Below are positions 22,832 to 38,864 of a DNA stretch of 64,000 nucleotides, in pieces. How positions within the stretch are numbered: the first letter of the stretch is position 1; every line of letters begins with the position of its first letter. Made by a program: the position numbers and the translations under genes. The DNA comes from Prostheceraeus crozeri (taxonomy: Eukaryota > Platyhelminthes > Polycladida > Euryleptidae): the NCBI GenBank assembly GCA_907163375.1, contig CAJQUW010015664.1, positions 1-64,000 on the forward strand, in the 5' to 3' direction. Below the pieces are notes generated by a model. The model was not told where the DNA came from, did no database searches, and saw nothing but the letters and a program-made list of their open reading frames with translations.

Positions 22832-25800
22832 CCATCAACTTCATCACCAACGCCCTCCCTTCTCCAGGAAAGTTTAGAGTCGTTGAGTCAAGATAGGTTG
22901 TAACAATACACTGAGACTTGAACAGAGATGATAGAATGATTTCTCTTTCAGGTGATGTGAGTTCCAGCTCAGGACTCTCGCGACAAGGCAACGAGTGGGA
23001 ATGTGCCGACTGCGGACATATGTTTACAAGGAAGCACAGTCTCCTTCGACACATCAAACAACGTGTGTGTCAACGCAAAGCGGCGTCAATCTCCGGAGGT
23101 GAAGTTGATTCTGACGATGACATCTCCTTTCCTTGCGATTTGTGCCCTCTTTCTTTTGATAGTCACTTTCAGCGATCTTCGCACAGACTTCAACACACGC
23201 ATGCAAATGATCACTACACCAACGGTACCTCTACCATCTCCCTCATTAATGTTTCACATAATAATTTAGTACGCGACTACTGCATGGAGTCCAATACTCA
23301 AATAGTAGATTTTCCTGAGTGGCTCCTTCAAAATTCTAACATTATCGAAGCGCTCTTCAACAATTTAGACAATTTTAGAATGAAGGCGCTCATCTACCTT
23401 AAACTAAAATATATTAAGATAGATTTTCAAACGGGTCAAGTGACGGAGAGAATACAGTTTCATGTTCCTTCCTCTTCCACAACCGAAGTTGTAGATTGCG
23501 AGTCTTGGCTAAATTTTCACATTCAATGTTTAAAATCAAATGTAGATAAATTCAATCAACGCGACAGCGCTCTCATTTTTGATGGTGTGGACTCAGCCAT
23601 ATTCAAAATTTCACTATTAGAAAGTCATGCAGCTCGAGGCACATTTAAACTACCAAAAACGTTGTATAATAAGAAAGCTGTCATCAATGTCGATTGTAAA
23701 TCACAGTGTTTCAAATATGCAGTCCTATCCATCCTTCACTATAATGATATCAACGCGAATCGAAATCATACCTATAGCTATAGACAGTGGAAGGATGAAC
23801 TAGACTTTGAAGGTTGTGATAGTAACAACATGAAAATCAAAGATGTAGAAACGTTCGAAAAACATAATAAGATTAAAATTGTCGTTCACGTGTGGGAGAA
23901 GGGGTTGAAGGGTGCCCGCTATAATTCACGTTCAACTTTTTATGAACGTGTAGTCAACCTCTTATTAGTAAAACAAGATGATAGCGAGGAATGGCACTAC
24001 TGTGGTATTCCCAAAATCTCTCGCTTGTACACTCACTTGGGGCACTCTAAAAGAGGTGAACATTTTGTATGCGACCGCTGCATCCGCTCCTTTTGGAGTA
24101 AAGATAAATTTGAAACTCACTATGAATGGTGCAAGCGAGGTAAATTACAAATGGAACGCATGCCCAAAGATAAAATATTTTCACATAGGGATAATGGTGA
24201 CGAATTAAGTCCCCTGCGTGTCATTTACGCAGACATAGAATGCTACATTGATGATATCATCCACAAGCCAGCAGCCATATCCTGCTATGAAGTATGGCAT
24301 GACCACTTTAGGAATAGACAAAACAAAATGCATACTTGGCAAGATGAAGATTGCATTTCAAAATTTCTAGAATTTCTCGATAAAGCTGCTAAATTTCAAC
24401 AATCATATGATTCCCAATTGCAGCGTAAGTCACTACATATGTCGGATGAAGACAAACAAAAATTTGAAAGTTGCACATCCTGTCCTAAATGTCATAAAAT
24501 GTTTGATGACGATAAAATGAAGAAAGTGCGTGATCATGATCACATCACTGGTAAATTTAGAAACGCACTCTGCTCCAAATGTAACTTTTCACTTAGGTTG
24601 AGACGTCGTGTACTACCCGTCATTTTTCATAACTTTAAGGGCTAGGACAGTCATATGCTCATAAAAGGAGGGTTGAGCCAGATGAAATCGTGGCAGTTTA
24701 ATGTAATAGCACAAACGAGAGAAAAATTCATGGCAATGACAGCAAAAGTACCAGTACATAAAACTAAAGAAAATAAGACAGTCTTCTTCGAAATAAAATT
24801 TTTAGATTCATTTCAATTCATGTCAGCGTCACTAGCTTCTCTCGTTCGTAATCTCAAGTTTCTTCCCCATAGTCAAACTTTGAAGAAACACTATCCAAAC
24901 TTAACGGATGAAATAATCACTCGCAAAGGAGTCTTTCCTTATGCGTATTTTAGCTCAATGTCTAAACTAAATGAAACAACCCTTCCTTCCATTGACAAAC
25001 TCAAAAACGATTTGACGGGTGAAGATTGTCCAGTAGAGGACTATGAACATGCTCAAGAGGCATGGTTAAAATTTGATTGTAAAACGTTTGGCGATTATAT
25101 GATCGCTTACTTAGAATTAGATGTCATTTTGCTGGCTGATGTCTTTCAGGAATTTCGACGAGTGGCATTAGAAGAAGACAAATTAGATCCTGTCCACTTT
25201 GTCAGTCTACCAGCCATGTCCTTTAAATCAGCCTGTAAAATGACTGGTGAGACCATTCATCTCTTACAAGACCCGGAGATGTATAATATATTTGAGCGCG
25301 GAATACGCGGTGGTCTCACATTTGTAAATAAACATCATATAAAATCTGAAACAGTAGGTGATGATCATATCCACCTAAAGTACTATGACCAAAATAATTT
25401 ATATGGCAGTTCACTGTCTAAACCACTACCTCATTCCGAGTTTAGTTGGTTAAATCAAGATGAGCTTGCGTATTACTCCAACCCTTCAAACATACTGAAG
25501 ATTCCAGATGAAGGTGATTGGGGATATTATTTTGAAGTGGATTTGATATATCCAAATAGCATTAAAAATAAAACTGCTGATTTCCCACTCGCACCTGAAT
25601 CTGGTGAAGTGACTGAAGATATGTTTTCACCATTCATGTCACAATTTCATAATAACTTAATAGAGTGTGGACAGCCAAGGTACAAACCATGCCGCAAACT
25701 TTTACTCACCCAATATGATAAGAAAAATTATCTCGTGCACTTCTGCATATTAAAATTCTATTTAGAAATGGGCATGCTTCTAAAGTCAGTTCACCGCATT

Positions 25801-26736
25801 ATCAAATTTAGACAGAAAGCCTTCCTCAAACCCTACATAGATAGTAACAGTCAAAAACGTGCACTCGCCCAAAATAATTTTGAAAAGGATTTTTATAAAT
25901 ATAAGAATAACAGTCTATTCGGAAAGACCATGGAGGATGTTAGAAAACGTATGAATTACAAACTAGTCGTTGATGAACAAAAATATCACAAATTGACCTC
26001 ATCACCTCTTTTCATTGATAGAGACATCATCGATGAGGATCTTGTAGGTGTTAAAATGATAAAATCAGAAGTTGAGTTGTGCAAACCCATCTATATTGAG
26101 CAAGCCGTTTTAGATTATTCCAAGCTTGAAATGTATCAACTCTTCTACAAAATATTAAAACCATGCCCTCTCGTAAAAGAGGTTGGCTTGCTGGGTGGTG
26201 ATACAGATAGTTTCTTTTTAGGAATTACCACTCAAAAAGATTTAAATTTTAATGAAGTAGGCAAGTCATTAGAAAAATATTTCGATACATCTAACTACAA
26301 TCCCACTCATCCACTCTATTCCATACAGAATAAAGCCAAACTTGGTTGTTTTAAGGATGAAACAGCAGGGAAGGAAATAGATGAAATGATTCTCCTCGGT
26401 CCTAAAATATATTCCATGAAATTAAAAGAATGTGCAGATAGTATTAAGCGTGCTAAAGGTATATCAAAATCCATTGTTCACAAAATGAAACATTGGTCCT
26501 ATAAGAAGGCCTATAAAAATAAAACTATAACGTTTGTCAATATGACAATCTTAAAATCTCAAGTTCATACTGTGAAAACGCACACGTTCAAGAAACGAGC
26601 ACTTTCAGCATGGGAGGATAAGAGGTGTTGGATAGGACATAACACATCTCTTCCACATGGACATCCTGACACAAACATACCTCCACTTAAAAGAATAAAA
26701 CTCACGCTACCACATTCAGGAGATGTATTGACATAA
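22832..26736 (+). pseudogene. Protein-primed type DNA polymerase B, in-frame stop
   Basis: This is the replicative polymerase of the element. Starting from 22918 the frame shows two C2H2 fingers (WECADCGHMF..., FPCDLCPLSF...) and a third near 24080 (CDRCIRSFWSKDKF). ExoI carries DIE in VIYADIECYID (24220), and there is an RDHDHITGKFRNALCSKC region. An in-frame TAG at 24643-24645 falls inside the ExoII region (FHNFKG before, DSHMLI after). The frame continues unchanged from there with ExoIII YLELDVILLADVF, PolA YYDQNNLYGS, PolB KNNSLFGKTMED and PolC GGDTDSFF. All catalytic motifs are present, so the nonsense codon is the only clear break apart from uncertainty at the 5' end. Convergent with the gene ending at 26942. 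Confidence 0.9.
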
Positions 26737-26941
26737 TCAACTTTAACTCAGTATTTTAATTTTTCTTTTTGTAGATATACATGGTTGTTTTATGTATCGC
26801 ATGAGATCGTTTCTTCCTTGTGAATATATGCCTACAGTCAGCCCATTCTTCCTTTATCTGTGAAAAGACTTTTTCATACATATATTTTTATTTCAATAAA
26901 CATAACACAGTGACTTCACTTTGTTTTCCGAAACACTAAAG

Positions 26942-28465
26942 TTACGAGGGATTTAGATCTTTCACATGGATGCACTCTTGTAAACCATTGGTAATTTTGA
27001 TAGCAATAGAGGGTATAGTTTGTTTGACGACGGGATGATAGAAAATAGATTCAAACATCTTCTCGACTATTCCATATGAAGCGTCTTTATCATGAATGAA
27101 ATCACGTAAAATGTATTCTTTTTTCTCACCAACAGAAATAGGTAGAATCAAATCACTTTGAATGTAAAGGTGCTGTTCATGTTTATCAAGTGTCATTGGT
27201 GTTTCTATACCAATCGTATGCGCAGCAGCAAACACTGTTTGTAGCATTGTAAAACCAAAGATTTTTTTCAAATTTTTACTCAATTGACATTGAATGTCAT
27301 CACCCAGTTTCAGAACAACGCGTTGATTTTCAATTGAAAACGAAATGTGGTGTGTCTTTACATCATATTTACTTTTCATCACATGCTTCAACTTCTGTTG
27401 TATATAAGGATTTACTAGATGAATGAAGCTTTCAACTGTATGATATAGACGCGGCATTATATTGATAGCAACTTTAGATTCTTGATAAGACTGGTAAATT
27501 TTCTTGATGCGATCGCCATAGATGTCCACCCACCATTCATCATTAACTGAATCAGCTTTAGTGTGATATTCATGAGAAGCATACACCACACCGCTTCCAA
27601 TAATAGGTGTATAATGTCTTACAAAATGACGCAAGGTTGGAGAGAAATAAACTGTAAGTTTGTCATTATATTTCTGAATAACCAACTTATTTTTGTTCGC
27701 CATAATTTTCTCTCCATACTTCTTACCCACAGTCTCATTCCATCGTTTTACTAACTCAATAAGTGATAAAGGTTGAACACCACGCTTTTTCAAAATGATC
27801 CGTTCTTCGCATTCTACAACATCTTCATCAAATATTTTAAATCTATAATGAAATTTGTTGATTCGATTTGAATAAACTTTTTTAACATTTGCAGTAGCAA
27901 TTGATGTTAGATGTAGTCCATGACCAAAACCAAGATGTGGATAGAATTCATTATCCAACCTCAGTGTAAGACCTTTAGTAAAAGAATGAAAGCGGAGGAA
28001 CTGTCTCCCACTCCAATGATAGATAGTAAACTCATAAGCTTTCTGATTTTTATTCTTCATGATGGAAGTATTGCCACTGTTGAATGCCTTAATAATTTTC
28101 TCATTCCCAAATGGACCATAAGAATCTGATTTTATCTGAATCCATTCATAATTCCACTTTCCATCTGACGTTAAATTGTATGGGAACTGAAATGCATTAT
28201 TCATCGTTATTCCATCATGGGTGCGAGGAGTCAATATCATTTCTTCCAAATCATTCGCATTCTGAATATTGCTATCATAGCAAATACTAGAAACGCCAAC
28301 CTCCCATTCACCTTCTAAATGTAGTGGGCGATTTAATTCTACTCGATAGTCTGATGGTTTATTTTTGGGAAATTTATTCATAGAAGCATTACTGGGCAAG
28401 TAGATTAGAAACGAGTCCTTATTTTCACTTTCCATATTATTCACATTGGAAAAATATATTAGCAT
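26942..28465 (-). CDS. Polinton virion-associated-type protein 1 (LPSN family)
   Basis: An intact 507-residue frame. The true start may be the Met at 28435 (MESENKDSFLIYLPSN). The N-terminal block with LPSNASMNKFPKNKPSDY, then LEGEWEVGVSSI, is a recurrent signature of a conserved but uncharacterised protein found alongside Polinton-type genes. The rest is mostly beta-rich with a repeated pattern of IMPRLYHTVESFI-like segments. A structural or host-attachment role is plausible but unproven. It is followed upstream by a broken paralogue (28475-29870) only 9 bp away, so the two look like a tandem duplication in one transcription unit. Confidence 0.7.
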   Translation of the reverse strand: MLIYFSNVNNMESENKDSFLIYLPSNASMNKFPKNKPSDYRVELNRPLHLEGEWEVGVSSICYDSNIQNANDLEEMILTPRTHDGITMNNAFQFPYNLTSDGKWNYEWIQIKSDSYGPFGNEKIIKAFNSGNTSIMKNKNQKAYEFTIYHWSGRQFLRFHSFTKGLTLRLDNEFYPHLGFGHGLHLTSIATANVKKVYSNRINKFHYRFKIFDEDVVECEERIILKKRGVQPLSLIELVKRWNETVGKKYGEKIMANKNKLVIQKYNDKLTVYFSPTLRHFVRHYTPIIGSGVVYASHEYHTKADSVNDEWWVDIYGDRIKKIYQSYQESKVAINIMPRLYHTVESFIHLVNPYIQQKLKHVMKSKYDVKTHHISFSIENQRVVLKLGDDIQCQLSKNLKKIFGFTMLQTVFAAAHTIGIETPMTLDKHEQHLYIQSDLILPISVGEKKEYILRDFIHDKDASYGIVEKMFESIFYHPVVKQTIPSIAIKITNGLQECIHVKDLNPS

Positions 28466-28474
28466 ACTTTTGCA

Positions 28475-29870
28475 TTAACTCTTCATTCGGAAATGGAGTG
28501 TGATACTTGTCACAGCCTCTTTATGAAAAGGAATCAACGCACCAGCATCGTCATAAATTGCAATATCAATTTGTGGGATGTAGTTTGATTTCAGCTTTGT
28601 ATAATGCACTTTCTTGAAAGTATGCTCAGATAAAATACTGCAGCTTTTTGGCTGGTATGGTATCATTGCTAGCAATGGAGCTTCAACATCTCCCACACGT
28701 ACATCTTCACCAATATTGGAATATATCTGAAAATAGTTAATACGACGCGATAGTGACATGTCTGCGCTAGCTTTGGTTACAGTACCACTTTTAAAGATAT
28801 TTTGATCAAAACCCAAAATGTCCATTAGAGTTTTATCCATAATTAGTTCAATACCTTTTCCACTTATAGTGAGAGACAAAGTACCTTCTTTTTCAGAAAA
28901 TGAAATATGTTGCTCATTAATCACTTCATTTAAATAATCTACAACCAATTTAACCGAAGTAATAATGCGAGGCATCAACACTCTTATTTCATGTAAGATA
29001 CCACCGAAAGGCTCTACACACTTTCTGTATAAAGATACGGTCCATTCTGTATCAAATTGATTTGACCTTTCACATGGTAAATGTTGCATATCAGATTTTC
29101 CATGAACAGCTGCAGAACGATGTCGTAAGAACTGATGAAAATCTTTTGAACAAACTAATACTAGATCATCATCATTTAATTTGCTTATTGCAATATGATT
29201 AGATGATTTGATATAAGTCAATGTTGCCACTTGTTTACCATCAACTCGAAGGAGATAATTAAATTTCTTCAATAATGTTTCAGGAGTCATGTTTGTCTTT
29301 CTTGGCTTAATCACAATCTTCTTCACCAACGTCTTCTCATTTCTTGGAATAAGATCTACATAATAAGCTTCCTCTCGATATATTAACTGTTTATGACCAC
29401 TTATGTCGTAATTAACGTTAAAATTATCATAGCTTGTTAAGGCGCTAGCGAGGTAACCTAAATCATTTCTTAAACTTGGACTTAAACCAACAATCCAATC
29501 TTTCTCAACTACATGATGTACATAATTATAATCATCATTGTGCGGAGTAAATTGGACAATATGTTTACTCGCTTTATTCAAGAAATCATATATAAACTTT
29601 TACATGATAAGAGATCTTTCTTTGGCCACTGTGGAATGTATACTCGGCACCCCTTTTCACATTGATAAGCAGCTGTACGTCTCATATTAATAGTCATCAC
29701 CTCAGTATAGAAGTATAGACACAGTTGCTATAAACAAGTTGAGTGACACCCACTTCCCAATTTCCATTTAGCTGTTGTACATGATCAATGGGAGTAGAAA
29801 AGAGTGCGGCTCGATTACTAGCAAATCTATTTGTAGCCGCATTGCTAAGCAAAATATGATAAAACGACAT
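28475..29870 (-). pseudogene. Polinton virion-associated-type protein 2 (paralogue), frame-broken
   Basis: The long frame 29581-28475 shares the layout of its neighbour, including RVLMPRIITSVKLVVDYL and a C-terminal end with PQIDIAIYDDAGALIPF then TLHFR. The N-terminal signature lies upstream in a different frame, from ATG 29870: SFYHILLSNAATNRF and LNGNWEVGV, clearly matching LPSNASMNKF and LEGEWEVGV of the neighbour. Between about 29585 and 29710 the frame is lost, by indel or an unrecognised intron. The gene is therefore longer than the intact-looking part suggests and probably inactive. Known: this family recurs with Polinton genes. Inferred: a virion role. Confidence 0.65.
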
Positions 29871-29905
29871 TTTGATATTGCTGATCTGCGACTTTGCATA
29901 ACATC

Positions 29906-30262
29906 ATGAAGACTTGGATTTTGGACTCTCTACAATATATCAGAGTTGATCGTGATGGAAACGTACATTTTAAAAATTCTCATGGTCATACATCAAGAGG
30001 TATTACATTAACATGGCGACAATTTGTCAACCTCAATGATATCATGAGGGATTTGGAATATTTTGAAACATTAAGATTCATCTCCTTGGGTGATCAAGTT
30101 TGGCTTCAACATTACAGAAATGAAATTCAAATCTACCATTCTCATTCCGCAAACTGTTTCTCATTTCGCAAATACAATTGGGAGAAGTATAGAAGATACA
30201 TACATCGCTCCATCATGACATTTATTCGTCGTGAGTTCATCGCCCTACTATGCAAATCTTAA
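29906..30262 (+). CDS. Polinton small protein A, paralogue of next gene
   Basis: A 118-residue frame from ATG 29906 (MKTWILDSLQYIRVDRDGN). It has about 40-50 percent similarity over its full length to the first 110 residues of the next gene. Both read W-LDSLQ-I..D.-GNV.FK.S.G...R...L, F..L..IM.DL.YF and WEKYRR-IHRSI. The beta-strand-then-helix pattern resembles a small single-strand-binding fold of the PC4/p15 type, but I would not assign it without a profile search. It opens a rightward cluster ending with a TBP-like gene, which makes a role in transcription attractive. Confidence 0.6.
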   Translation: MKTWILDSLQYIRVDRDGNVHFKNSHGHTSRGITLTWRQFVNLNDIMRDLEYFETLRFISLGDQVWLQHYRNEIQIYHSHSANCFSFRKYNWEKYRRYIHRSIMTFIRREFIALLCKS

Positions 30263-30284
30263 TCAGACATGACTACCACACATC

Positions 30285-30935
30285 ATGAGTTGGAAATTAG
30301 ATTCCCTACAACGTATTGAAACGGATCATGATCGAAACGTCTATTTCAAAGATTCAACTGGAAATGTGAGAAGAGAGTTTGCTTTATCTTATCGTCATTT
30401 TCAATCTCTACATCATATCATGAAGGACTTGAAATACTTCTATATGAAAAGACATTCACGTATTGGAAATCGCATCTGGCTGCGCGTCAACAATCGGCGA
30501 ATTCAACTCTATCATTCCCAACTTCATACTAACTTCACATTTCATCAAGGTAGTTGGGAAAAGTATAAAAGGAAGGTGCATCGCTCAATTTACTCATTTT
30601 TTCATCATGAAGCGCCATCGCTACACCATCGTCAACATTCTCCGTCGCTTCAGACTCTACACCAAAATCGATCTCACAACATTACACCAACAGCTTCCAA
30701 ACAGCAAGTATTACCCGGGCCGTCCTCAAATGTTAGTGGTGAAGATGAACAATTCACGGAATCTTCAACTCTTCCCAAATGGGACTGTACAGATTCTCGG
30801 CGCTCTTTCTCATTCATCGGCGCAGTCAATGCGCTTAGAGCTACAGAGACTACTACGTCGGATATGGAAGAGGGAGAGGTGTGTGATGTCGAATCTGAGT
30901 GTGGACAATATGGTGATCTCTACTCAATTGAGTGA
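30285..30935 (+). CDS. Polinton small protein B, overlaps TBP-like gene
   Basis: A 216-residue frame (MSWKLDSLQRIETDHDRNV) starting 23 nt after the stop of its paralogue. Residues 1-110 match that paralogue. The remainder is a low-complexity Ser/Thr/His/Gln-rich tail ending in acidic MEEGEVCDVESECG. From 30607 onward this tail is read in a different frame from the TBP-like protein, so either the overlap is real or the tail is a by-product of a lost stop codon. The paralogue ends at the equivalent point, which favours the second option. Confidence 0.55.
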   Translation: MSWKLDSLQRIETDHDRNVYFKDSTGNVRREFALSYRHFQSLHHIMKDLKYFYMKRHSRIGNRIWLRVNNRRIQLYHSQLHTNFTFHQGSWEKYKRKVHRSIYSFFHHEAPSLHHRQHSPSLQTLHQNRSHNITPTASKQQVLPGPSSNVSGEDEQFTESSTLPKWDCTDSRRSFSFIGAVNALRATETTTSDMEEGEVCDVESECGQYGDLYSIE

Positions 30936-31152
30936 AAGTGTTTCATTTTTGAAGATTCGTACCAGCAGTTACAATTTGTGTTATGAACCCGAACTTTTTC
31001 CTGCAGCTCTCATTAGTTGTTGGTTACCTGTGCATGTGGCAATCTTTCATAATAGTAAAGTGATCATTACTGGACTAAAATCTCATGTACAAGCAAATGT
31101 GATCCTAGACTATCTCATTGAGTATGTACGTACCCAGCGGATTGTAAAATAA
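30607..31152 (+). CDS. TATA-binding-protein-like protein
   Basis: A 181-residue protein from ATG 30607 with two tandem TBP-type repeats. In TBP these form the saddle that bends promoter DNA and recruits TFIIB. Repeat 1 (residues about 5-75) has IVNILRRF, SKYYPGRPQMLVVKM and LFPNGTVQILGA. Repeat 2 (about 95-178) opens NLSVDNMVIS, then YEPELFPAALISC, VAIFHNSKVIITGLKS and NVILDYLIEYV. YEPELFP and the I.F..-[S/G]-K-[V]-ITG-KS pattern are signatures of the TBP second repeat. Length matches a bare TBP core with no N-terminal extension. The first repeat is more diverged. A poly(A) signal AATAAA overlaps the end (31150). It converges on the protease gene. A viral-type promoter-recognition role is inferred. 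Confidence 0.85.
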   Translation: MKRHRYTIVNILRRFRLYTKIDLTTLHQQLPNSKYYPGRPQMLVVKMNNSRNLQLFPNGTVQILGALSHSSAQSMRLELQRLLRRIWKRERCVMSNLSVDNMVISTQLSESVSFLKIRTSSYNLCYEPELFPAALISCWLPVHVAIFHNSKVIITGLKSHVQANVILDYLIEYVRTQRIVK

Positions 31153-31178
31153 AAAACAATTTTTCCAACATGATGTTT

Positions 31179-31640
31179 TTATTTCAAATCATGATAGAAC
31201 TTACAAATCATTTTTTCATTAGAGGATGGATTACATGAAAAGTTTTGAATAATAGATGCAAATCGAGATACATGTAAACGTTTTAAGATGAAGTACAGTA
31301 CAAAAGCACCACACGTTGATGAAAGTGGATGTTGTAGTATGCGTTCATTTCGCTGATATTGACGCGTATGTTTTCTCAACCACTGCTGTGTTGGTATATT
31401 TGGAGGTTGAGCAAGAGAGTCAAATAGTTCACCACGTCGGTCTTCTCCAATAAAGATCGCTTTCCAATGCTCACCGCCTAAATTCTGCGAATGAGTGTTT
31501 AGCACAATAAAGATGGGATAGTGATTTACTGCAGGTGGTAAAGTATCGAGTGAATAGACATTATCGAAAGCTTTCAACGTCGCTTCGTCTGCATTACGCT
31601 GCACTTTAGTCTTAATATCGTCAGCAGTCAACCAACTCAT
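31179..31640 (-). CDS. Adenain-like cysteine protease
   Basis: A 153-residue protease that would mature virion proteins. Catalytic residues are visible in adenain order: His in GGEHWKAIF (residue about 58), acidic partner in ELFDSLAQPP, and nucleophile Cys in HPLSSTCGAFVLYF (about 110). Length is shorter than adenovirus protease but typical for Polintons. Its ATG overlaps the stop of the upstream capsid gene (TAATG), so the two are probably translated from one message. Probable targets are the capsid-associated basic and pVI-like proteins in the same element. Minus-strand AATAAA lies just downstream (31177). Confidence 0.9.
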   Translation of the reverse strand: MSWLTADDIKTKVQRNADEATLKAFDNVYSLDTLPPAVNHYPIFIVLNTHSQNLGGEHWKAIFIGEDRRGELFDSLAQPPNIPTQQWLRKHTRQYQRNERILQHPLSSTCGAFVLYFILKRLHVSRFASIIQNFSCNPSSNEKMICKFYHDLK

Positions 31641-32917
31641 TAACGATTATACTGAAGAATCACGTCACGATACTTTGTAATTTCAATATTTGAATCGAAG
31701 ACTGCATAAATTAATACATTGATCGTCTCAGGTAGTGTTCTTTTGAACGTCAAATCCAAACGAATATTATGAGGCACGTTCGCTTGACGACAGGGGGCAC
31801 TAATATCGCTGTCAGCAGTCAAATCAAATGCATAAATAGTATATCCACTCTTAAACTCTTTCATAGTCAGTCCGTTGGTGTCATCCGTATTGTAAAAGCC
31901 AAAGACATCCATAAAATCAACATAACTGCGCATAAATTGATCCGAAGCAAAATCTGGTTTGTAGGGTGGACCAGGATGACTCACACCATTTACACGTAAA
32001 GCAATTTCACTTAACTGATTGTGTTTGAAATTGAAAGGATTCTTCTTTATATTACCATTAAATGCATCATTTTCAACCATTGCCACCATGAGGAGCTTCG
32101 GTGCTTCCGATGGAAAGAGGCCATCTTTCATGAAACTCTTTTGATCTTTCGGAATTGTAAAGGTGAGAAGCTTTGTATGCTGAACGGGGTAAATGGCATT
32201 TTGGCGGTTAAGGCCTTCAGCATGCCCTCTAATGACACTTGGATTCGGTACTACTCGACGAATGTAAAGTGCAATATCTTCCACATGAATTCTAAAATTG
32301 TCAACTTTAGCAAATGCATTCAGCGCAAATTCAGGCTTATTCAATGTCAGCTTGAGTCGCATACTGGTATTACAGAGTAAAAACTTTGACTGTCTAAAGA
32401 AGTCTAAATTCAGCGGACCATATAGCTGACATACTTTACTATCTTTAATCATAGCAGATCGCTTTACAAAGCCACTGTTTGTTTCAACATGAAATTTTCC
32501 TGCTTCATCTCTGTACCATCCCATGGCTTCCATATGACTTTTTTGTGCTGCTGGATGAAACTGTGATACATGATTGAAATATGATTTATAGGGATAATCG
32601 CTTTGACCACCTTCCACCTGCTGCTCTCCAATCGTTAGAGAAACATCGCGAAGTAATGTAGTCAATGGTAAATTGTTCAGTCCAACTTTATGTGCATCGT
32701 CAATAGCAGTTCCATCTGCTTGCTGAATTCTAAACCTCAAATCAAGCATCGCATAGCTCAAATCTATGTAGTCATCACTACCACCAGGAATAACAAATTC
32801 AATGGGGCCAGCATTCTCAGCTGTTCGAGGATGATAATCTACAATACTTGAACTAAGAATATCTGTCTGTATGGCTTGTTGATCGAACAAACAAAAACCG
32901 GAAGTTTTACACTCCAT
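31640..32917 (-). CDS. Major capsid protein (double jelly-roll type)
   Basis: An intact 425-residue frame (MECKTSGFCLFDQQAIQTDIL). It has PIEFVIPGGSDDYIDLSYAMLDLRFRI near the N-terminus and conserved FNHVSQFH, PLNLDFFRQSKFLL and DLTFKRTLPETINVLIYAVFD regions. This is the hexon-like capsid family found in Polintons and adintoviruses, often labelled by its C. elegans homologue F54H12.2. It would form the icosahedral shell with two jelly rolls. It sits between the basic core-like protein (2 bp away) and the protease (overlapping stop/start), a compact virion gene cluster on the minus strand. Confidence 0.88.
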   Translation of the reverse strand: MECKTSGFCLFDQQAIQTDILSSSIVDYHPRTAENAGPIEFVIPGGSDDYIDLSYAMLDLRFRIQQADGTAIDDAHKVGLNNLPLTTLLRDVSLTIGEQQVEGGQSDYPYKSYFNHVSQFHPAAQKSHMEAMGWYRDEAGKFHVETNSGFVKRSAMIKDSKVCQLYGPLNLDFFRQSKFLLCNTSMRLKLTLNKPEFALNAFAKVDNFRIHVEDIALYIRRVVPNPSVIRGHAEGLNRQNAIYPVQHTKLLTFTIPKDQKSFMKDGLFPSEAPKLLMVAMVENDAFNGNIKKNPFNFKHNQLSEIALRVNGVSHPGPPYKPDFASDQFMRSYVDFMDVFGFYNTDDTNGLTMKEFKSGYTIYAFDLTADSDISAPCRQANVPHNIRLDLTFKRTLPETINVLIYAVFDSNIEITKYRDVILQYNR

Positions 32918-32919
32918 GA

Positions 32920-33375
32920 TTAGAAGTTATAGCAGCGTCGTCGTTTAGCGCCTGATGAATGATTAGAGCCTCTACGACGTTTGCGTGAATGCCTTTTAAC
33001 TGAAGATCGCACCTTACCAGCTCCGCGATGTTTCCTCCTTCCTTTATTCATTCGTTTAGGTGATTTCTTTCCTTGAGTAACACCAGCAAAGGTCTGCTTC
33101 AATGTTTTTAAACCGCGTTCCTTCCCACGATTCAACAAACTGCTCTTAAAACTTCTACCTCTGGAAAGATCACTAGCAACATCACCAGCAAAGCCAACGG
33201 CATTACTTAAAACATTTCGTTTTAAAGATCTACCGACATTGGAAATGAGAGGTGCTACAACAGATTTCAGTGCACCAAGTATGCTACCTCCACGTTGGCG
33301 GCGAGCGCCAATGTAAATTTGTCCTCCACCACTTACATAGGAGGGTCGTGAATAAAATGAGGCAGTTGGATTCAT
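32920..33375 (-). CDS. Basic core-like virion protein
   Basis: An intact 151-residue protein, very rich in Lys/Arg at the C-terminus (KRHSRKRRRGSNHSSGAKRRR). The N-terminus has GGGQIYIGARRQRGGSILG, where Gly-Gly dipeptides after hydrophobic or basic residues resemble adenain cleavage sites. A moderately hydrophobic helix (ILGALKSVVAPLISNVG) follows. The composition matches adenovirus pVII/pX-type core or pVI-like proteins, which package DNA and are cut by the viral protease. Its position directly before the capsid gene supports a virion role; exact homology is inferred. Confidence 0.7.
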   Translation of the reverse strand: MNPTASFYSRPSYVSGGGQIYIGARRQRGGSILGALKSVVAPLISNVGRSLKRNVLSNAVGFAGDVASDLSRGRSFKSSLLNRGKERGLKTLKQTFAGVTQGKKSPKRMNKGRRKHRGAGKVRSSVKRHSRKRRRGSNHSSGAKRRRCYNF

Positions 33376-33416
33376 AGCTCAAACCCTAAACATTGTTAGT
33401 TACAACTTTGCATGAA

Positions 33417-34504
33417 TCACTGTCGATCACTTAGATGAAAGATGTCGGCACGACGCATCCAAGAGTTCATACTTGAAGGATAACCAGTCCATTTAACAAG
33501 ACCCCATTCTTCACCTTGCCGTTTTTTACATCGAATGATTTTCTCTACCAAATATGTTTCACTTTCAGTGACTACCTCAATCTCATCGCGGTAAAAGCTA
33601 CCCTCAATTTCTTCATTATCGTAATCTTTCAACTTGTAGGTGGTCGGAGAGTCTTTTTGATTAATCCTTGATACTGTAAATACCTCTTCTGTCCAATTCG
33701 GAAGGTACCCTTTAGCAAAAACACTTTTCACTTTTGAGATACGAACTTTATCACCAATTTTCACATCACTTTTCACATGAGTGCGTTTACGTTGGAATGA
33801 TTCGCGCACTTTATCTACATTGTCAGCATTTACATCTACTGGTTTGAGTCCAATAGAACGATGGATAGAGTGATTGTAGGCATGGAGTGTATCTTGTAGA
33901 ACCTTTGTCCAATTTTGTGTCAAGTTGGCAGTAAAATGTCGCCACAAGCGATTTTTTAATGTGCGATTAAAACGTTCAACGAGTGCAGCTTTATAAGCAC
34001 TCTTTACACTAAACAACTCAATGTCATGCCTCTCAAATAATCTTCGCACATGCTGATTTTCAAACTCTTTTCCTTGATCACTCTGAATTCTTTTTGAAAT
34101 GCGACCTTCTCGAAAAATTGTTGGAATGCTTTTGCTACTCCTTTCCCTTCTTTAGTTTTTAAAGGTTGAGCCCACGCATAACGCGAGAAAATATCAATGG
34201 CGGTTAAAATAAAGTTATTGCCCGAGTTATGTTTTGAAATGGAGGCAACATCACACAAATCTGCTTGCCACTGTTCATCGATGTCATGAAGAATATAATG
34301 GCGGGTGCGGTACTTCTTTTTCGCTTGTTTGTGGAGTGTATAGGTAGCCTGACCCTTTAACCTTCGTTTCACTTGTGATTGTGGAAGACCACTCGCTTTT
34401 GATAATTTCTTGATAGATGCAAATCCTGCCGGATGTTTTACATCATAATAGATTGACTTCAAACGTTCAGTCGATGACGACTGACTCTTTTTCCTTCTTC
34501 TCAT
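33417..34504 (-). pseudogene. Retroviral-type integrase with chromodomain, frameshifted
   Basis: A DDE integrase that would insert the element. It begins around 34504 (MRRRKKSQSSS). The N-terminal part has IYYDVKHPAGFASIKKL and LKGQATYTLHKQAKKKYRTRHY, then WQADLCD (first Asp) and ILTAIDIFSRYAWAQPLK. The frame is lost near 34080-34100, beside an A/T run. Another frame resumes with the second Asp region (SDQGKEFEN), followed by AALVERFNRTLKNRLW (Glu). The C-terminus has an SH3-like region and a chromodomain (VEKIIRCKKRQGEEWGLVKW). All catalytic residues exist, split by one indel, which may be a base-calling error or genuine decay. Confidence 0.88.
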
Positions 34505-34682
34505 CTTTTTGTTTTCTTGCCTTTCTACATTTACAACAACTGCAGCATTTAGCTTTAGCGGTTTTGCGATCGTGTTCACATTGCTTAGGGGTTTCATTGT
34601 GAGAGCTTGCGCAGCAAGTGCAAGTGACAACGACATTCACCTCTGGCGGCTCATTACATTGCAAGCAGCACATCTGCTTCAT
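34467..34682 (-). CDS. Small cysteine-rich protein overlapping integrase start
   Basis: A 71-residue frame (MKQMCCLQCNEPPEVN) with Cys pairs CCLQC, CTCC, CEHD and CCSCCKC, then a very basic, lysine-rich tail. It could be a zinc-binding nucleic-acid-binding protein. It begins 1 nt after the stop of the upstream gene and overlaps the start of the integrase in a different frame. That spacing matches the compact style of this cluster and argues that it, not a longer integrase N-terminus, is coding there. No family is recognised. Confidence 0.5.
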   Translation of the reverse strand: MKQMCCLQCNEPPEVNVVVTCTCCASSHNETPKQCEHDRKTAKAKCCSCCKCRKARKQKDEKKEKESVVID

Positions 34683-34683
34683 A

Positions 34684-35376
34684 TTAATAGTCTGAGAACA
34701 TGTATTTCCTGGGAGGAGCTGTTTTACGTTTTCCTTTTACTAGTTTTAGTGGCGATGTAGATCTACGTCGAGTTCTTCCTCTTGTTTGCTTAGTGAGTGT
34801 GGGAGGGGATGTAGCAGGTGACGTCTTAAACCAATTTGTTGGAATTTTCATCGTCTGAAGCATTGGAGCAGTAGCCACTGTTGAATCAAGTTCTTTCAAT
34901 GTCTCATTATTCAAAGCAAATTTTGGTACATTATGCTTTTTCAATAGTTTAAGAAAGTATGACCAACCAGGTGGAACATAGCCCTGACGGCGCTTTCTAC
35001 GTGTCGCATACTGAATCAAGTCTTCATAACGTGAAGCGTCAATCACTTTATTTTCATCTGTAATGATTTCTCCTCTATCATTTACATTGAGATGGGGTTC
35101 AATACTATTGAAAAGAGATATGGCATGTGCGCGAGATGCTAAAGGTGTTGCAGTCGATACAGAGTCACGCATCTTATTCTTCAAGTTTTTTAATTGCGCA
35201 ACAGTTTCCGATTGTAATAATACAGCACGATGTGGATCTTTGATGTGAACATTTTGCTGATAATCTATTTCTTTCCTATACATTTGATTTGCAAGAGGTT
35301 GCTTTACTTGCTGCATGGCAGTCAATTGTACATATTCATCCTGAGGAATAACAATCATGCGAGAATAAGAACTCAT
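34684..35376 (-). CDS. Polinton conserved protein, unknown (230 aa)
   Basis: An intact 230-residue frame (MSSYSRMIVIPQDEYVQL). The middle carries a predicted-helical QSETVAQLKNLKNKMRDS segment, then ARRKRRQGYVPPGW-like wording in YATRRKRRQGYVPPGWSYFL. It ends basic (RGRTRRRSTSPLKLVKGKRK). Proteins of this pattern accompany the ATPase in other Polintons, but their function is not known to me. It lies between ATPase (25 bp upstream) and the cysteine-rich gene on one strand. Confidence 0.6.
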   Translation of the reverse strand: MSSYSRMIVIPQDEYVQLTAMQQVKQPLANQMYRKEIDYQQNVHIKDPHRAVLLQSETVAQLKNLKNKMRDSVSTATPLASRAHAISLFNSIEPHLNVNDRGEIITDENKVIDASRYEDLIQYATRRKRRQGYVPPGWSYFLKLLKKHNVPKFALNNETLKELDSTVATAPMLQTMKIPTNWFKTSPATSPPTLTKQTRGRTRRRSTSPLKLVKGKRKTAPPRKYMFSDY

Positions 35377-35401
35377 AGTTTGTAGATAATCATGGGAGTT
35401 T

Positions 35402-35989
35402 TCAAAATATCACTTCGAAATCTATATTCTTCCGGACACTCTTGCGTAAAGTCAATGAATAAGTAACCGTATGGTTTTCAGTAGCTGCTTGAAAAATTTC
35501 AATTAAGGCTTTTGATCCTCTGGGTGCAACTTGTCGCGCTAAAATTTCAAATTGACTTTTATCTCGCGGATTCTTGAAAATAGCATAATAGTGTGTATTC
35601 AGGTTTCGTGTACGAGCTTCTTTTCCATCAGGAAACAAATTTTGTGTGATATAGATGATAAAGCACCTTTTATGATGTGCTGCGCGAGTGAACATATCTG
35701 TAACATCTTTTGAATTCTTACTTTCTTTTAATAAATCATCCAATACAACAACATCATTAGACTGAAGTTTATCCACTGGAATAATTCCTTCATATGGAAT
35801 AAAGTTGCGACTTTGCAATTCCTGAAACAGCGACGGTTGATAAATACCATAACACCAAATCACTCGATTGATAGGTTCCTTAAACAACTCCCTTCTTTTA
35901 TCCAATAAATTCAGCGTGAAAACAGTTTTACCTGCATGAGATGGGCCTGATACAGTCAGAACATTATCACATTGAAGTCTGAAATCCAT
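35402..35989 (-). CDS. Genome-packaging ATPase (FtsK/HerA type)
   Basis: An ATPase of the A32/FtsK-HerA group, which pumps DNA into capsids. Walker A is VSGPSHAGKTVF (near residue 15 from the Met at 35989). Walker B is NDVVVLDDLL. A following conserved IYITQNLFPDGKEARTRNLN segment carries the sensor/Gln region typical of Polinton ATPases. I choose ATG 35989 because the upstream in-frame extension lacks an ATG and overlaps the end of the pVI-like gene. About 195 residues, as expected. It belongs to the minus-strand virion gene run. Confidence 0.9.
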   Translation of the reverse strand: MDFRLQCDNVLTVSGPSHAGKTVFTLNLLDKRRELFKEPINRVIWCYGIYQPSLFQELQSRNFIPYEGIIPVDKLQSNDVVVLDDLLKESKNSKDVTDMFTRAAHHKRCFIIYITQNLFPDGKEARTRNLNTHYYAIFKNPRDKSQFEILARQVAPRGSKALIEIFQAATENHTVTYSLTLRKSVRKNIDFEVIF

Positions 35990-36020
35990 TTTATTACTTT
36001 GAGACTCAACATTTGCATAA

Positions 36021-36379
36021 TTAACGCTTAGAGCCAAAGATATTTCCCAATAGGTTGCCCACGGCAGGAGCTATCATTGGAAGTATTGCTGAAAGGAAAC
36101 GCCCTTTTGTGTTAGAGTTTCCCTCTTTCTTTGAAGGGTGACTTTAGGATTGGAGATGAAACGCAATTTTGTGGCATATCGCTTAAGTAACTTTCGTTGT
36201 TTTGGCGCTAATGTCTTCGTCCTCAACTTTCTGACATGAGAAATAATTTCGCGAATGAATTTATCGTTGGCATGTCGTATAGCATTGTATCGCTGATTTG
36301 CTTTCATTCGTCGGAGAGCTTGAATGGCTGAAGAAAACTTTGAAGACTTTTTACGTTTCGTCATTTTACGTTTCGCCAT
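36021..36379 (-). pseudogene. pVI/pX-like basic membrane-active protein, frameshifted at 3' end
   Basis: A highly basic 101-residue frame (MAKRKMTKRKKSSKFSSAIQ) ending at 36074. Near its end (QKGVSF...) a different frame opens a hydrophobic glycine-containing tail: FLSAILPMIAPAVGNLLGN, ending GSKR at 36021. A basic region joined to a Gly/hydrophobic tail is the usual form of the pVI/pX-like proteins of Polintons and adintoviruses, so the tail is probably displaced by an indel near 36100. Such peptides are thought to disrupt membranes or coat DNA during entry. Lies directly upstream of the ATPase. Confidence 0.65.
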
Positions 36380-36430
36380 TTTCCGTGTTAGTCTTTGCTA
36401 AAACCTATCTTTACCACATTTGCATAGGTA

Positions 36431-36748
36431 CTAACTATTGCGACATAAGTGACACTCGAAATGAGCAATGTCACAGTGGTTACATTTGCAAAGTTGAATG
36501 CAATTACATATGAAACAGCGTTGACAAAAAGCATGCTTACATCTCTTGAAGATGCGCTTTTCATTTCCATCCTTTCGCTTACATACATCACAACACATAG
36601 TTTCACCGTTACTGATGTCTATAGCAAGTCTTTTTGAAGATATGAATTTGCTAGCCTTTTCTAAATAATAGACACATGTACAGAAGGAATATACTTCGAG
36701 AGTGAGAAAAAAATGTCGAAAACCAGTTGTGCTACAATCAAGTACCAC
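36431..36748 (-). CDS. RING-like zinc-binding protein, start uncertain
   Basis: The frame is open from 36748 but has no ATG before MCCDVCKRKDGNE at 36595, so a short 54-residue product or a frame-displaced fusion to the upstream gene are both possible. Cys/His residues follow a RING/treble-clef spacing: CCDVCKRK, then RCKHAFCQRCF, CNCIQLCKCNHC and ECHLC. RING domains often act as ubiquitin ligases. A second short RING-like gene lies at 37834-38034. Confidence 0.45.
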   Translation of the reverse strand: MVLDCSTTGFRHFFLTLEVYSFCTCVYYLEKASKFISSKRLAIDISNGETMCCDVCKRKDGNEKRIFKRCKHAFCQRCFICNCIQLCKCNHCDIAHFECHLCRNS

Positions 36749-36755
36749 TGCATTT

Positions 36756-37166
36756 TCAATTTTTCTTTATGGAAAGTTGAATGTGAATATCTGAAATCGC
36801 TTCAATCACTAGACTGCTGCCATGATGGTTAAATGCGTTAAGACGTTCAGCAATTTTTATCATATGTCTTTTAAAAAATTCTTCGGGGTGATCTACCACT
36901 TCCATTGAATAAAAAGCAAAATGGAAAGAGCGACTTTCCACCTCTTCCTTTCCAAAATGACTAAACTTAATTTTCGCAACTAATCGCGCCATGATAATGC
37001 TATCAGAGAATGTATTCATTGACTCTAGAAATAGAGTGCTAGCATCATCGACCACTGCTTCGATGTCGGTCTCATCTTTATGAAAATTTATCACATAATC
37101 TTGAACAGCTCCTTTTAAACTTTGCCTATGAAAATGTAATGTTCCGCAGTCGTTTGAGAAAGACAT
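36756..37166 (-). CDS. Polinton protein, unknown (136 aa)
   Basis: An intact frame (MSFSNDCGTLHFHRQSLKG). Mostly beta/alpha with FSHFGKEEVESRSFHFAFYS and a C-terminal FNHHGSSLVIEAISDIHIQL. That last patch recalls a region that precedes polymerase B in other mobile elements (a Gly-Ser-x-hydrophobic-xx-Ile pattern), but the evidence is thin. Neighbours are an exonuclease-like gene upstream and a RING-like gene downstream. Confidence 0.5.
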   Translation of the reverse strand: MSFSNDCGTLHFHRQSLKGAVQDYVINFHKDETDIEAVVDDASTLFLESMNTFSDSIIMARLVAKIKFSHFGKEEVESRSFHFAFYSMEVVDHPEEFFKRHMIKIAERLNAFNHHGSSLVIEAISDIHIQLSIKKN

Positions 37167-37250
37167 GATCGCCCTTTATCTAACCCATCCATTGCATGAA
37201 AACAACTCTTCTCATAGTAACATTTATTGAATAACGGTAACAAGCATGCA

Positions 37251-37781
37251 TTATAAATCAATGGTTTGAAACAGATAAAATAGATACAGCTGGTAACTAT
37301 CATACAGCGAGCAATGATGACCATACAGGACTTTGGCAGTGTTGAGGTAAGGAGGAAAGAAGGATTGGTTATGAACGTAGCTACTACAACGAACAGACAA
37401 AATAGGAACACACAAATCCTTAAAACGTTTCGTGACTTTATGGTAGTGTTGATTCACTCTACTATCCCAAGGTGGGAGCAAAATGTCATCAATGATTAGA
37501 TTGGGAAATACTTTCCTCTCCTTACCAGGATTATTACAAAAGATGCGTATAACATTGAAAGCAGCTAACCATCGTTTAAAGTCAATAAGAAGAGCACTCT
37601 CACAAGAAAAGCCATAGTCTTGCAAATATTTCAGATTAAGTCCATGAATGTGTTTTCTCGCCCATTGATCAACATTGGGATCGCAGTTGGCATGATGATG
37701 ATAGACACTAACAATCTGATATGTCCAATTGTTCATAGCAATAGCACTGAGCTCCTGTACAGGTTCACCCTCACAATCCAT
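37251..37781 (-). CDS. DEDD-type exonuclease-like protein
   Basis: An intact 176-residue frame opening MDCEGEPVQELSAIAM. The D-x-E pair followed by a strand ending in hydrophobics is the first motif of RNase H-fold DEDD exonucleases. KHIHGLNLKYLQDYGF and ESALLIDFKRWLAAF occur where the second and third motifs would lie. The C-terminal third (HHCSLYDSYQLYLFYLF) holds a candidate tyrosine/aspartate motif. It may proofread or process DNA/RNA for the element. The call rests on motif spacing only, with some possibility of chance. Confidence 0.45.
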   Translation of the reverse strand: MDCEGEPVQELSAIAMNNWTYQIVSVYHHHANCDPNVDQWARKHIHGLNLKYLQDYGFSCESALLIDFKRWLAAFNVIRIFCNNPGKERKVFPNLIIDDILLPPWDSRVNQHYHKVTKRFKDLCVPILSVRCSSYVHNQSFFPPYLNTAKVLYGHHCSLYDSYQLYLFYLFQTIDL

Positions 37782-37833
37782 AAAAATGATGATAGAAGCC
37801 TAAAACGGAAATTTACACATCTAAGGAAACGTT

Positions 37834-38034
37834 CTATAACATATTACAAAATGAAGAATTACATCGATGCTTTTCACGACAAAATACACAAATGATATGA
37901 TGGCAACGAAGAAGTAAAATGTATCTAATAAGACCACGTCTACGACACTCAAAGCACATAAGCGAATTGTCATAGGGTAGAGTTAGGAAAGGACTAGTAA
38001 TTCTCCTTCTTTGATTTGCGTTTTGAGGCAGCAT
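37834..38034 (-). CDS. Short RING-like zinc-binding protein
   Basis: A 66-residue frame from ATG 38034 (MLPQNANQRRR). It overlaps the 3' end of the next gene upstream. The core is MCFECRRRGLIRYILLLRCHHIICVFC, a C-x2-C...C-x-H-x4-C-x2-C arrangement that resembles the first half of a RING finger, then EKHRCNSSFC. Its similarity in style to the protein at 36431-36595 suggests a pair of related zinc proteins. Confidence 0.4.
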   Translation of the reverse strand: MLPQNANQRRRITSPFLTLPYDNSLMCFECRRRGLIRYILLLRCHHIICVFCREKHRCNSSFCNML

Positions 38035-38763: not shown

Positions 38764-38864
38764 TTTAGTTGGATAATAGAACAGGGAACTAGAGAGAGAG
38801 AAAATGTGCGTCCGTCACTCGTGCGATTCAACGATGGAATGATTCTCACTGTGGAAGGCTCGCT

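What the first reader, a model, noticed from the sequence alone, without database searches (positions are those of the whole stretch)
30607..31152. A TBP-like promoter-recognition protein encoded by a Polinton
The frame contains two tandem TBP-type repeats. The second is easily recognised (YEPELFPAALISC, then IFHNSKVIITGLKS); the first carries the equivalent YYPGRPQMLVVKM and NGTVQILGA. Several genes of this element have clear TATA boxes (18091, 20120, 20644, 38865). An element-encoded TBP could switch its own promoters or outcompete host TBP. TBP-like proteins are known in some large DNA viruses; I do not know of one established as part of Polintons. It is intact while several neighbours are broken.
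Basis: partly seen in the sequence, partly recalled or inferred. Interest (0 to 1): 0.88.

Follow-up and report, generated by a model that had tools for sequence, protein, structure and literature searches.

The report
Polinton-encoded TATA-binding protein family
A virus-like mobile element, present in hundreds of copies in what looks like an animal genome, carries its own strongly conserved version of the protein that tells cells where genes start, which suggests that it may run its own gene-expression programme.

Summary
Confirmed. 30607-31152 (+) encodes a two-lobed TBP: Pfam TBP E=2.1e-20, AlphaFold pLDDT 95.9, and all 44 PDB fold matches at E<=0.001 are TBPs. It lies inside a Polinton with a double-jelly-roll capsid protein, protease, integrase, PolB-like gene and inverted repeats.

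It belongs to a distinct TBP family: all 135 listed relatives carry the TBP domain, and a 100/100 branch parts the family from host TBP and TLF and from human and archaeal TBPs. Host TBP is 87% identical to human's, 26% to this protein.

At least 300 TBP copies in two families sit in this genome. 20 of 20 fetched copies keep the small paralogs, protease and capsid gene in order; pN/pS is 0.13.

Lobe 2 keeps the TFIIB-contact glutamates and both phenylalanines; lobe 1 is rewired (F to P, V to invariant Q, T to L/M/F). Best model: a substitute TBP recruiting host TFIIB to the element's own promoters. A TATGCAAA motif before several genes is a tentative target. My searches found no published Polinton TBP.

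The parts
30607..31152 (+). Polinton TBP, 181 aa, two TBP lobes (residues about 6-85 and 97-175)
   Evidence: open frame; PF00352 E=2.1e-20, two stretches; profile against PDB; model and fold match; pN/pS 0.134 among the window and 20 copies, 0 stops, 0 indels
30564..30571 (+). canonical TATA box TATAAAAG, 43 nt before the TBP start codon, inside the codons of the upstream ORF
   Evidence: unchanged in 20 of 20 copies; also at the same place in both family-2 copies read, whose TBP is 44% identical. Function inferred
30285..30617 (+). small gene upstream of TBP, paralog of 29906-30262; its ORF runs on to 30935 in another frame over the TBP gene
   Evidence: 44% identity between the two; pN/pS 0.141; changes in the overlap respect the TBP frame only
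29906..30262 (+). first of the two paralogous small genes, unknown function
   Evidence: start codon checked
31179..31640 (-). cysteine protease (Ulp1/adenovirus-protease type), next gene after TBP
   Evidence: Peptidase_C48 E=0.0013, Peptidase_C5 E=0.044, both below the curated cut-off
31640..32917 (-). major capsid protein, double jelly-roll
   Evidence: 263 relatives; pTM 0.84; PDB matches PBCV-1 1.3e-16, Sputnik 2.3e-15, mavirus 1.8e-14
33417..34636 (-). retroviral-type integrase with chromodomain, frame-broken
   Evidence: rve E=0.00049 and rve_3 E=0.0023, both below the curated cut-off; Chromo E=8.9e-07, above it; two overlapping ORFs in different frames
35402..35989 (-). packaging-ATPase-like gene (Walker A GPSHAGKT read by eye)
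   Evidence: Pox_A32 E=0.017, weak; start codon re-chosen at 35989
22918..26736 (+). PolB-like gene with N-terminal C2H2 finger and endonuclease VII-like domain, split by an in-frame stop
   Evidence: Endonuclease_7 E=1.3e-06; zf-C2H2 E=0.0009, below cut-off; polymerase motifs read by eye only, no Pfam, NCBIfam or PDB polymerase match
14404..39844 (.). span of the element between inverted terminal repeats; ends AGTAGTAAGTAAAACTCC on both sides; no matching target-site duplication seen
33407..33413 (-). one of six ATGCAAA motifs (mostly preceded by T) 29-46 nt before start codons; others: 28469-28475 -, 29893-29899 -, 30250-30256 +, 36012-36018 -, 36419-36425 -
   Evidence: candidate promoter element, tentative

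Best explanation
The gene encodes a second, element-owned TBP that belongs to a family of Polinton TBPs. It most likely works as a substitute promoter-recognition factor. Lobe 2 bends DNA and docks the host's TFIIB, and so RNA polymerase II. The altered lobe 1 changes which DNA is read and probably weakens contact with host regulators of TBP. The TBP gene has a canonical TATA box, so host TBP could switch it on early; the element TBP would then serve promoters of the element's own class, for which TATGCAAA is the present candidate. Shown: TBP identity and predicted fold, residence in Polintons, separation from host TBP, purifying selection, conservation of the TFIIB-contact glutamates. Inferred: DNA binding, TFIIB recruitment, the early/late order and the target motif.
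For: TBP identity. Selection: among the window and 20 copies TBP pN/pS is 0.134 with no stop or indel, MCP 0.210; in the stretch overlapped by the upstream ORF, 9 of 15 changes (19 ungapped copies) are silent for TBP and 0 of 15 for the other frame. DNA surface in 136 members, human numbering: F214, F288, F305 kept in 136, 135, 136 of 136; N257 136 of 136, N167 114 of 114 with a letter; F197 is P in 130 of 133, V220 is Q in 136 of 136, T222 is L, M or F in 136 of 136. TFIIB surface: E284 kept in 133 of 136 (3 D), E286 136 of 136, L287 125 of 136. PMC7221094 names E284 (C.L3.2) and E286 (C.L3.4) as TFIIB contacts (passages); L287 as a contact is recalled. Regulator surface: at R235 and R239, N-lobe signature positions in that paper, the family is basic in only 30 and 21 of 136. 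No TFIIB-like match among the element ORFs scanned, unlike most TBP-bearing viruses, which have a TFIIB-like gene (PMC7221094). Promoters: ATGCAAA within 60 nt before 6 of 17 curated starts; 0 of 4000 and 0 of 3000 random sets have any 7-mer that often.
Against: No binding, expression or TFIIB contact was measured. The promoter statistic depends on the choice of starts: two were re-chosen after I saw the motif. With 90 nt instead of 60 the curated set is matched by 3 of 3000 random sets. Without the two re-chosen starts it is 5 of 16 (reached by 16 of 3000 at 60 nt, 86 of 3000 at 90 nt). With the 27 unedited ORF starts only 4, which 1351 of 3000 sets reach for some 7-mer at 60 nt and 2767 of 3000 at 90 nt. 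ATGCAAA is not enriched overall (27 in the window, 22.1 expected). Family 2 has TBP but no ATGCAAA in the 60-90 nt before the genes checked, and no capsid gene was found in the pieces read, so TBP is not tied to capsid genes alone. MCP and protease genes of the window lack the motif in their 60 nt. ATGCAAAT is also the POU octamer (recalled). The TATA before TBP lies in codons of the upstream ORF, so its conservation may be coding. Motif constraint in copies is weak by variable sites (2 of 28 against 16 of 117 in the rest of these intergenic stretches, my count; by base-copies 2 of 553 against 57 of 2307). The regulator patch is only partly lost: K243 position basic in 64 of 114, and the window's protein has R at R239 and K243.
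Confidence: 0.55

Rival explanations
1. It is a plain TBP double: it binds ordinary TATA boxes and competes with or tops up host TBP on element and host promoters, with no specificity of its own.
For: Three of four intercalating Phe and the TFIIB stirrup are kept; TATA boxes stand before TBP and at 20120 and 20644.
Against: Lobe 1 contact residues are changed in the same way in nearly all members (P at F197 in 130 of 133, Q at V220 in 136 of 136, L/M/F at T222 in 136 of 136), which suggests altered reading of DNA; 26% identity to host TBP.
Confidence: 0.2
2. The TBP fold is used for something other than transcription start, for example bending the terminal repeats or binding single-stranded DNA during replication.
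For: Retained in family 2, which has a PolB-like gene but no capsid gene found in the 17.7 kb examined of one copy. A TBP lacking key phenylalanines binds single-stranded DNA in Giardia (PMC12209930, start of abstract in the listing).
Against: The TFIIB-contact glutamates, not needed for replication, are almost invariant (133 and 136 of 136); three of four Phe are kept.
Confidence: 0.15
3. It is a recent stray copy of the host TBP or TLF gene caught in the element.
For: Cellular TBPs are its only solved relatives.
Against: Host TBP (two exons on C9306) and a TLF-like gene (C3829) were found in the same genome; they fall on the cellular side of a 100/100 split whose two drawn halves add up to 3.9 changes per column. 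The gene is in at least 300 copies here and has 135 listed relatives in public sequence sets.
Confidence: 0.01
4. TATGCAAA is a host POU-factor octamer site or chance, and has nothing to do with the TBP.
For: Sequence equals the octamer in part (recalled); the unedited start set gives no family-wise signal; family 2 has TBP without the motif before its genes.
Against: 6 of its 9 occurrences in 18600-38620 sit 29-46 nt before a start codon on the same strand (two of the six starts re-chosen), a core-promoter distance.
Confidence: 0.4

Closest known systems
Cellular TBP (PF00352), the host's own TBP
   Same: Two-lobed fold, asparagines and three of four DNA-kinking Phe, TFIIB-contact E284/E286 and L287 positions
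   Different: 26% identity to the host's own TBP; F197 to P, V220 to invariant Q, T222 to L/M/F; N-lobe signature positions R235 and R239 mostly not basic; no N-terminal extension; encoded by a mobile element
KSHV ORF24 and beta/gamma-herpesvirus vTBP (PMC12529657: abstract and sections 4, 15, 16 read)
   Same: Virus-encoded TBP mimic using host RNA polymerase II; polar residue at the V122 (yeast numbering) position, N485 there and Q here; altered T124 position
   Different: ORF24 keeps F99 and F116, lacks the TFIIB glutamates and has further domains for Pol II and partner contact; the Polinton TBP loses F99, keeps the glutamates and is only the TBP core
TBPs of giant viruses and mirusviruses (PMC7221094 passages; PMC10132985 passages: 59% of mirusvirus genomes)
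   Same: DNA-virus TBPs of distant sequence; BFVD fold matches to Heterosigma akashiwo virus, Terrestrivirus and others
   Different: According to PMC7221094 almost all viruses with a TBP also have a TFIIB-like protein and conserve C.L3.2 in about 40%; here E284 is kept in 133 of 136 and no scanned element ORF matches TFIIB
TLF/TRF2 (TBPL1)
   Same: TBP paralog with changed DNA surface
   Different: The host TLF-like gene groups with human TBPL1 (recalled sequence), 99/95, not with the Polinton proteins
Polinton/Maverick elements, adintoviruses
   Same: Inverted repeats, integrase, protease, double-jelly-roll MCP, PolB-like gene, ATPase-like gene
   Different: A TBP gene as a component is not mentioned in what I saw of the papers found (listings; term look-ups in main texts 27, 28, 31)

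Membership tests
TBP (PF00352) | Profile match over both lobes | tested here: met
   E=2.1e-20, two stretches; family 2 E=7.2e-22
TBP (PF00352) | Saddle fold of two alpha/beta lobes | tested here: met
   predicted model, pLDDT 95.9; all 44 PDB matches with E<=0.001 are TBP chains or complexes containing TBP
TBP (PF00352) | Four DNA-intercalating phenylalanines | tested here: not met
   three of four; the F197 position is P in 130 of 133
TBP (PF00352) | TFIIB-contact acidic pair in lobe 2 | tested here: met
   E284 position E in 133 and D in 3 of 136, E286 position E in 136 of 136; roles from PMC7221094
TBP (PF00352) | Basic lobe-1 cluster for TFIIA, Mot1, TAF1, Brf | tested here: not met
   R235 position basic in 30 of 136, R239 in 21 of 136 (both named in PMC7221094); K243 position, my guess for N.H2.21, basic in 64 of 114; window protein L, R, R
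TBP (PF00352) | Binds TATA DNA and nucleates initiation | not testable with these tools
   needs protein
Polinton/Maverick | Retroviral-type integrase | tested here: met
   rve E=0.00049 and rve_3 E=0.0023 in the two fragments (each below the curated cut-off), Chromo E=8.9e-07 above it
Polinton/Maverick | Adenovirus/Ulp1-type cysteine protease | tested here: inconclusive
   Peptidase_C48 19.1 bits against a cut-off of 20.7; right size and place
Polinton/Maverick | Double-jelly-roll MCP | tested here: met
   (predicted model)
Polinton/Maverick | Protein-primed PolB | tested here: inconclusive
   no polymerase profile or PDB match; polymerase motifs only read by eye; endonuclease VII part matches
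Polinton/Maverick | Packaging ATPase | tested here: inconclusive
   Pox_A32 E=0.017; Walker A read by eye
Polinton/Maverick | Terminal inverted repeats | tested here: met
   14404 and 39844; left arm expanded by repeats
Polinton/Maverick | Short target-site duplication | tested here: not met
   no matching flanks beside 14404/39844; the left side is rearranged, so this is weak
beta/gamma-herpesvirus vTBP | Extended protein with Pol II- and ORF34-binding domains | tested here: not met
   181 aa, TBP core only
Host TBP/TLF copy | Groups with host TBP or TLF in a tree | tested here: not met
   100/100 split

The most novel reading that the evidence does not exclude
A family of Polintons carries a two-step transcription switch. 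Canonical TATA boxes let host TBP express early genes, including the element's own TBP; the element TBP, with a glutamine in place of a groove-lining valine, then reads a G/C-centred box (TATGCAAA) before structural genes and recruits host TFIIB and Pol II there. It would be, as far as I know (recalled, not searched), the first viral TBP that keeps host TFIIB while changing its DNA code; capsid-poor relatives would use the same protein with another box.
Probability: 0.25. Interest if true: 0.93.

Novelty: new variant of a known kind. Interest (0 to 1): 0.82.

Why it matters
Polintons are thought (established view, recalled) to be close to the root of many eukaryotic DNA viruses, and how they express capsid genes in their hosts' nuclei is, to my knowledge, not worked out. 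A conserved element-owned TBP gives a concrete handle: it names a promoter factor, predicts host TFIIB as partner and predicts a promoter class. It is also a natural experiment in TBP specificity: 136 aligned natural variants share a fixed change of residues that line the minor-groove face. Such genes may also confuse annotation, since public sets already label some as the TATA-box binding protein of TFIID (4 of the 120 rows listed).

Tried and rejected
Searches that led nowhere: IMG/VR with TBP, TBP alignment, MCP, MCP alignment and PolB and GTDB contigs with both alignments gave no confirmed relative, so no other element's DNA came from there. PHROGs gave nothing for TBP. Rfam (gathering scores) and ARAGORN found no RNA gene in the window.

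Considered and rejected: recent host stray copy. A functional overlapping protein over the TBP gene (ORF 30285-30935, open in 19 of 20 copies): in the overlap 9 of 15 changes are silent in TBP and 0 of 15 in the other frame. General enrichment of ATGCAAA: not so. My reading of 29907 as the start of the first paralog was off by one (one search shows stops in that frame; the ATG is at 29906), so the p29907 row is not used; the curated start list still held that error and a PolB start off by three, both put right.

Biases: the 20 copies were picked by me from the 150 best TBP scores, so their TBP pN/pS leans low. The planned unbiased sample through MCP could not be run. The contig-length test used the 135 TBP and 120 MCP rows listed, of 400 and 263 found; without a length cut it gives 6 against a mean of 1.22, reached by 1 of 800 shifts. 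One search left out 4 of 136 family rows shorter than 150 aa; one search used 30 of 136 plus one family-2 protein; indels were found in 1 (p30285), 4 (protease), 3 (MCP), 2 (33375) of 20 and 5 (28475) and 19 (26942) of 19 copies, in-frame stops in 1 copy each of protease, 33375 and 28475 and 3 of 26942; 14 of its 147 non-host places carry a stop (my count).

Full report
Observation. The frame at 30607-31152 is open for 181 codons. Pfam TBP matches twice in it (E=2.1e-20). phmmer finds 35 PDB sequences, 34 of them named as TBP or TFIID or as TBP fusions and one named only by its locus. A search of 5.8 billion proteins gives 61 relatives at 34-82% identity, all with the TBP domain. The profile built from them gives 400, of which 120 are listed, all with the TBP domain. 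The AlphaFold model from 136 sequences has mean pLDDT 95.9 and pTM 0.87. Its 44 PDB matches with E<=0.001 are all TBP chains or complexes. This is far more than chance.

Surroundings. Next to it on the other strand lie a cysteine protease (31179-31640; Peptidase_C48 E=0.0013, just under the cut-off) and a 425-aa protein whose model (pTM 0.84) matches double-jelly-roll capsid proteins of PBCV-1, Sputnik and mavirus (1.3e-16 to 1.8e-14). The same element has a split integrase with chromodomain, a gene with C2H2 and endonuclease VII parts followed by a PolB-like half, and an ATPase-like gene. Inverted ends AGTAGTAAGTAAAACTCC lie at 14404 and 39844. I found no target-site duplication, and the left arm is expanded by repeats of about 300 bases. 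PolB rests on motifs that I read by eye; no profile confirmed it.

Not a lone case. The whole genome (2.05 Gb, 14165 contigs) is held. The window's TBP finds 150 scored copies (of 11888 first-look candidates) at 98-100% identity, all full length, none with a stop. A relative (P0022) as query brings up a second family: 150 scored copies, 5 with a stop; the ten loci kept are 42-44% identical to the window's TBP. The two lists do not overlap: their open-frame lengths differ (199-292 against 180-201 residues, with no shared value by my reading), and the four contigs that I found in both carry different positions. So at least 300 copies exist. Two further queries returned 150 places with 3 stops and 147 non-host places with 14 stops, partly the same places. 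I fetched 20 of the 150 first-family copies. In 20 of 20 the two small paralogs, TBP, protease, MCP and the 33375 gene stand in the window's order and orientation; 19 of 20 also keep the two genes and the PolB end on the other side. Among these and the window, pN/pS is 0.134 for TBP, 0.210 for MCP, 0.255 for the protease. The copies were chosen through TBP, so this leans low for TBP, but no copy carries an indel or stop there, while 3 and 4 of 20 carry indels in MCP and protease.

Elsewhere. No context is given for the database proteins, but longest-contig lengths are. Among rows of 5000 bases or more (34 TBP, 71 MCP) five lengths are shared (7106, 5810, 5387, 9996, 10272); the mean of 800 shifted controls is 0.19 and the largest 2. 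This is indirect evidence that TBP and MCP share contigs in other data sets.

Not the host's TBP. The human TBP core finds the host's own gene as two exons on C9306 (85-86% identity) and a TLF-like gene on C3829. A TLF, which groups with human TBPL1 (sequence recalled), points to an animal host; this is inference. In the tree all seven cellular proteins are one side of a 100/100 branch and all 31 Polinton proteins the other; host TBP is 86.8% identical to human TBP and 26.4% to the window's protein. A larger tree (132 family rows, 5 cellular) agrees. Where the family came from is open: identity to two archaeal TBPs (28-29%) is no lower than to the animal ones.

How it may work. Human TBP added to the family alignment shows which contacts are kept. 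Kept: F214, F288, F305, N167, N257, V259, T313, and E284, E286, L287 (L287 in 125 of 136). E284 and E286 are TFIIB contact positions according to PMC7221094 (passages); viral TBPs there keep the first in about 40%, and almost all such viruses have a TFIIB-like protein. KSHV ORF24 also lacks the TFIIB glutamates (PMC12529657 section 16). Here they stand in 133 (plus 3 D) and 136 of 136, and no scanned ORF of the element matches TFIIB. Changed: F197 is proline in 130 of 133, V220 glutamine in 136 of 136, T222 L/M/F in 136 of 136. ORF24 has asparagines at the last two (PMC12529657 table 1) and reads a TATT motif (section 4). The basic lobe-1 cluster that binds TFIIA, Mot1, TAF1 and Brf (PMC7221094) is only partly kept: the R235 and R239 positions are basic in 30 and 21 of 136, the K243 position in 64 of 114; the window's protein has L, R and R. 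So the simplest reading is a TBP that still calls host TFIIB, reads different DNA and is less open to host TBP regulators. All of this is inferred from residues.

Promoters. ATGCAAA, mostly preceded by T, lies 29-46 nt before the start codon on the same strand in 6 of 17 curated genes, and 6 of its 9 sites in 18600-38620 are so placed. No 7-mer does as well in 4000 or 3000 random sets at 60 nt; at 90 nt 3 of 3000 do. This needs care. Two starts (28435, 35989) were re-chosen after I saw the motif; without them it is 5 of 16, reached by 16 of 3000 sets at 60 nt and 86 of 3000 at 90 nt; with 27 unedited ORF starts there is no family-wise signal (1351 of 3000 and 2767 of 3000). MCP and protease themselves lack it. 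In the two family-2 stretches read, none of the genes checked has it before its start. The TBP gene itself has TATAAAAG 43 nt before its ATG, unchanged in 20 of 20 copies and present at the same place in both family-2 copies, though it also encodes part of the upstream ORF. An early TATA class and a TATGCAAA class is therefore a lead, not a result.

Literature. Ten searches of the open-access library were made. Those on Polintons or Mavericks with TBP or TATA terms and on Polinton transcription or promoters (of which 30 of 121 papers were listed, and 102) list no paper on a Polinton TBP as far as titles and abstract starts show. Term look-ups in the main texts of PMC11071296, PMC11071308 and PMC10120064 found no TBP. 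In PMC7786948, PMC11464507, PMC12085832 and PMC4602308 the passages show the terms without relation to each other or in giant or algal viruses. Subscription papers and supplements were not searched. TBPs are in print for mirusviruses (PMC10132985 passages), elements of an alga with mirusvirus-like capsid genes (PMC10675990 passage), giant viruses and herpesviruses.

Verdict. The new parts are a broad Polinton TBP family, its heavy amplification in one genome, its fixed rewiring of lobe 1 with an intact TFIIB face, and a capsid-poor relative that keeps it.

Noticed in passing
L041 and L039 (C13086:232300-250000), L040: Second TBP-bearing family: PolB-like gene (43% and 63% identity to the window's halves), TBP, repeated relatives of the small genes 37166 and 38608 and one of 37781, but no match to MCP, protease, integrase or ATPase in the 17.7 kb of one copy. 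Possibly a capsid-less lineage; distant capsid genes could have been missed.
   Followed up: partly
25000-26736 against L009-L028: The PolB end exists in two versions: 83-85% identical to the window in 10 of 20 copies, 95-99% in 9 of 20 (absent in 1), while the other genes are 95-100% alike; suggests exchange between element lineages.
   Followed up: no
30285-30935: The small gene upstream of TBP stays open about 110 codons into the TBP gene in another frame, in 19 of 20 copies and in both family-2 stretches read; changes in the overlap respect the TBP frame only.
   Followed up: yes
26942-28435 and 28475-29870 (-): Two adjacent genes of unknown function that look paralogous (shared start region, read by eye), candidates for minor capsid proteins; start region of the second is out of frame.
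   Followed up: no
15037-18034, 39025-39844: Left terminal repeat is expanded into arrays of about 299 bases, partly inverted; right one is short.
   Followed up: no
P0138: A protein that NCBI names after a metagenome bin, Pseudomonadota bacterium, is 86% identical to this Polinton MCP, so the bin probably holds eukaryotic DNA.
   Followed up: no
60770-63954, 8353-9081, 40436-41299 with 46412-47274: Other mobile DNA: a Ty3-like retroelement, a reverse transcriptase fragment, and a 99.5% inverted repeat of 864 bases.
   Followed up: no
20426-20611 and 20931-21158: Stretch repeated behind two small left-end ORFs, both with canonical TATA boxes about 45-51 nt before the likely starts (distances counted by eye).
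   Followed up: no
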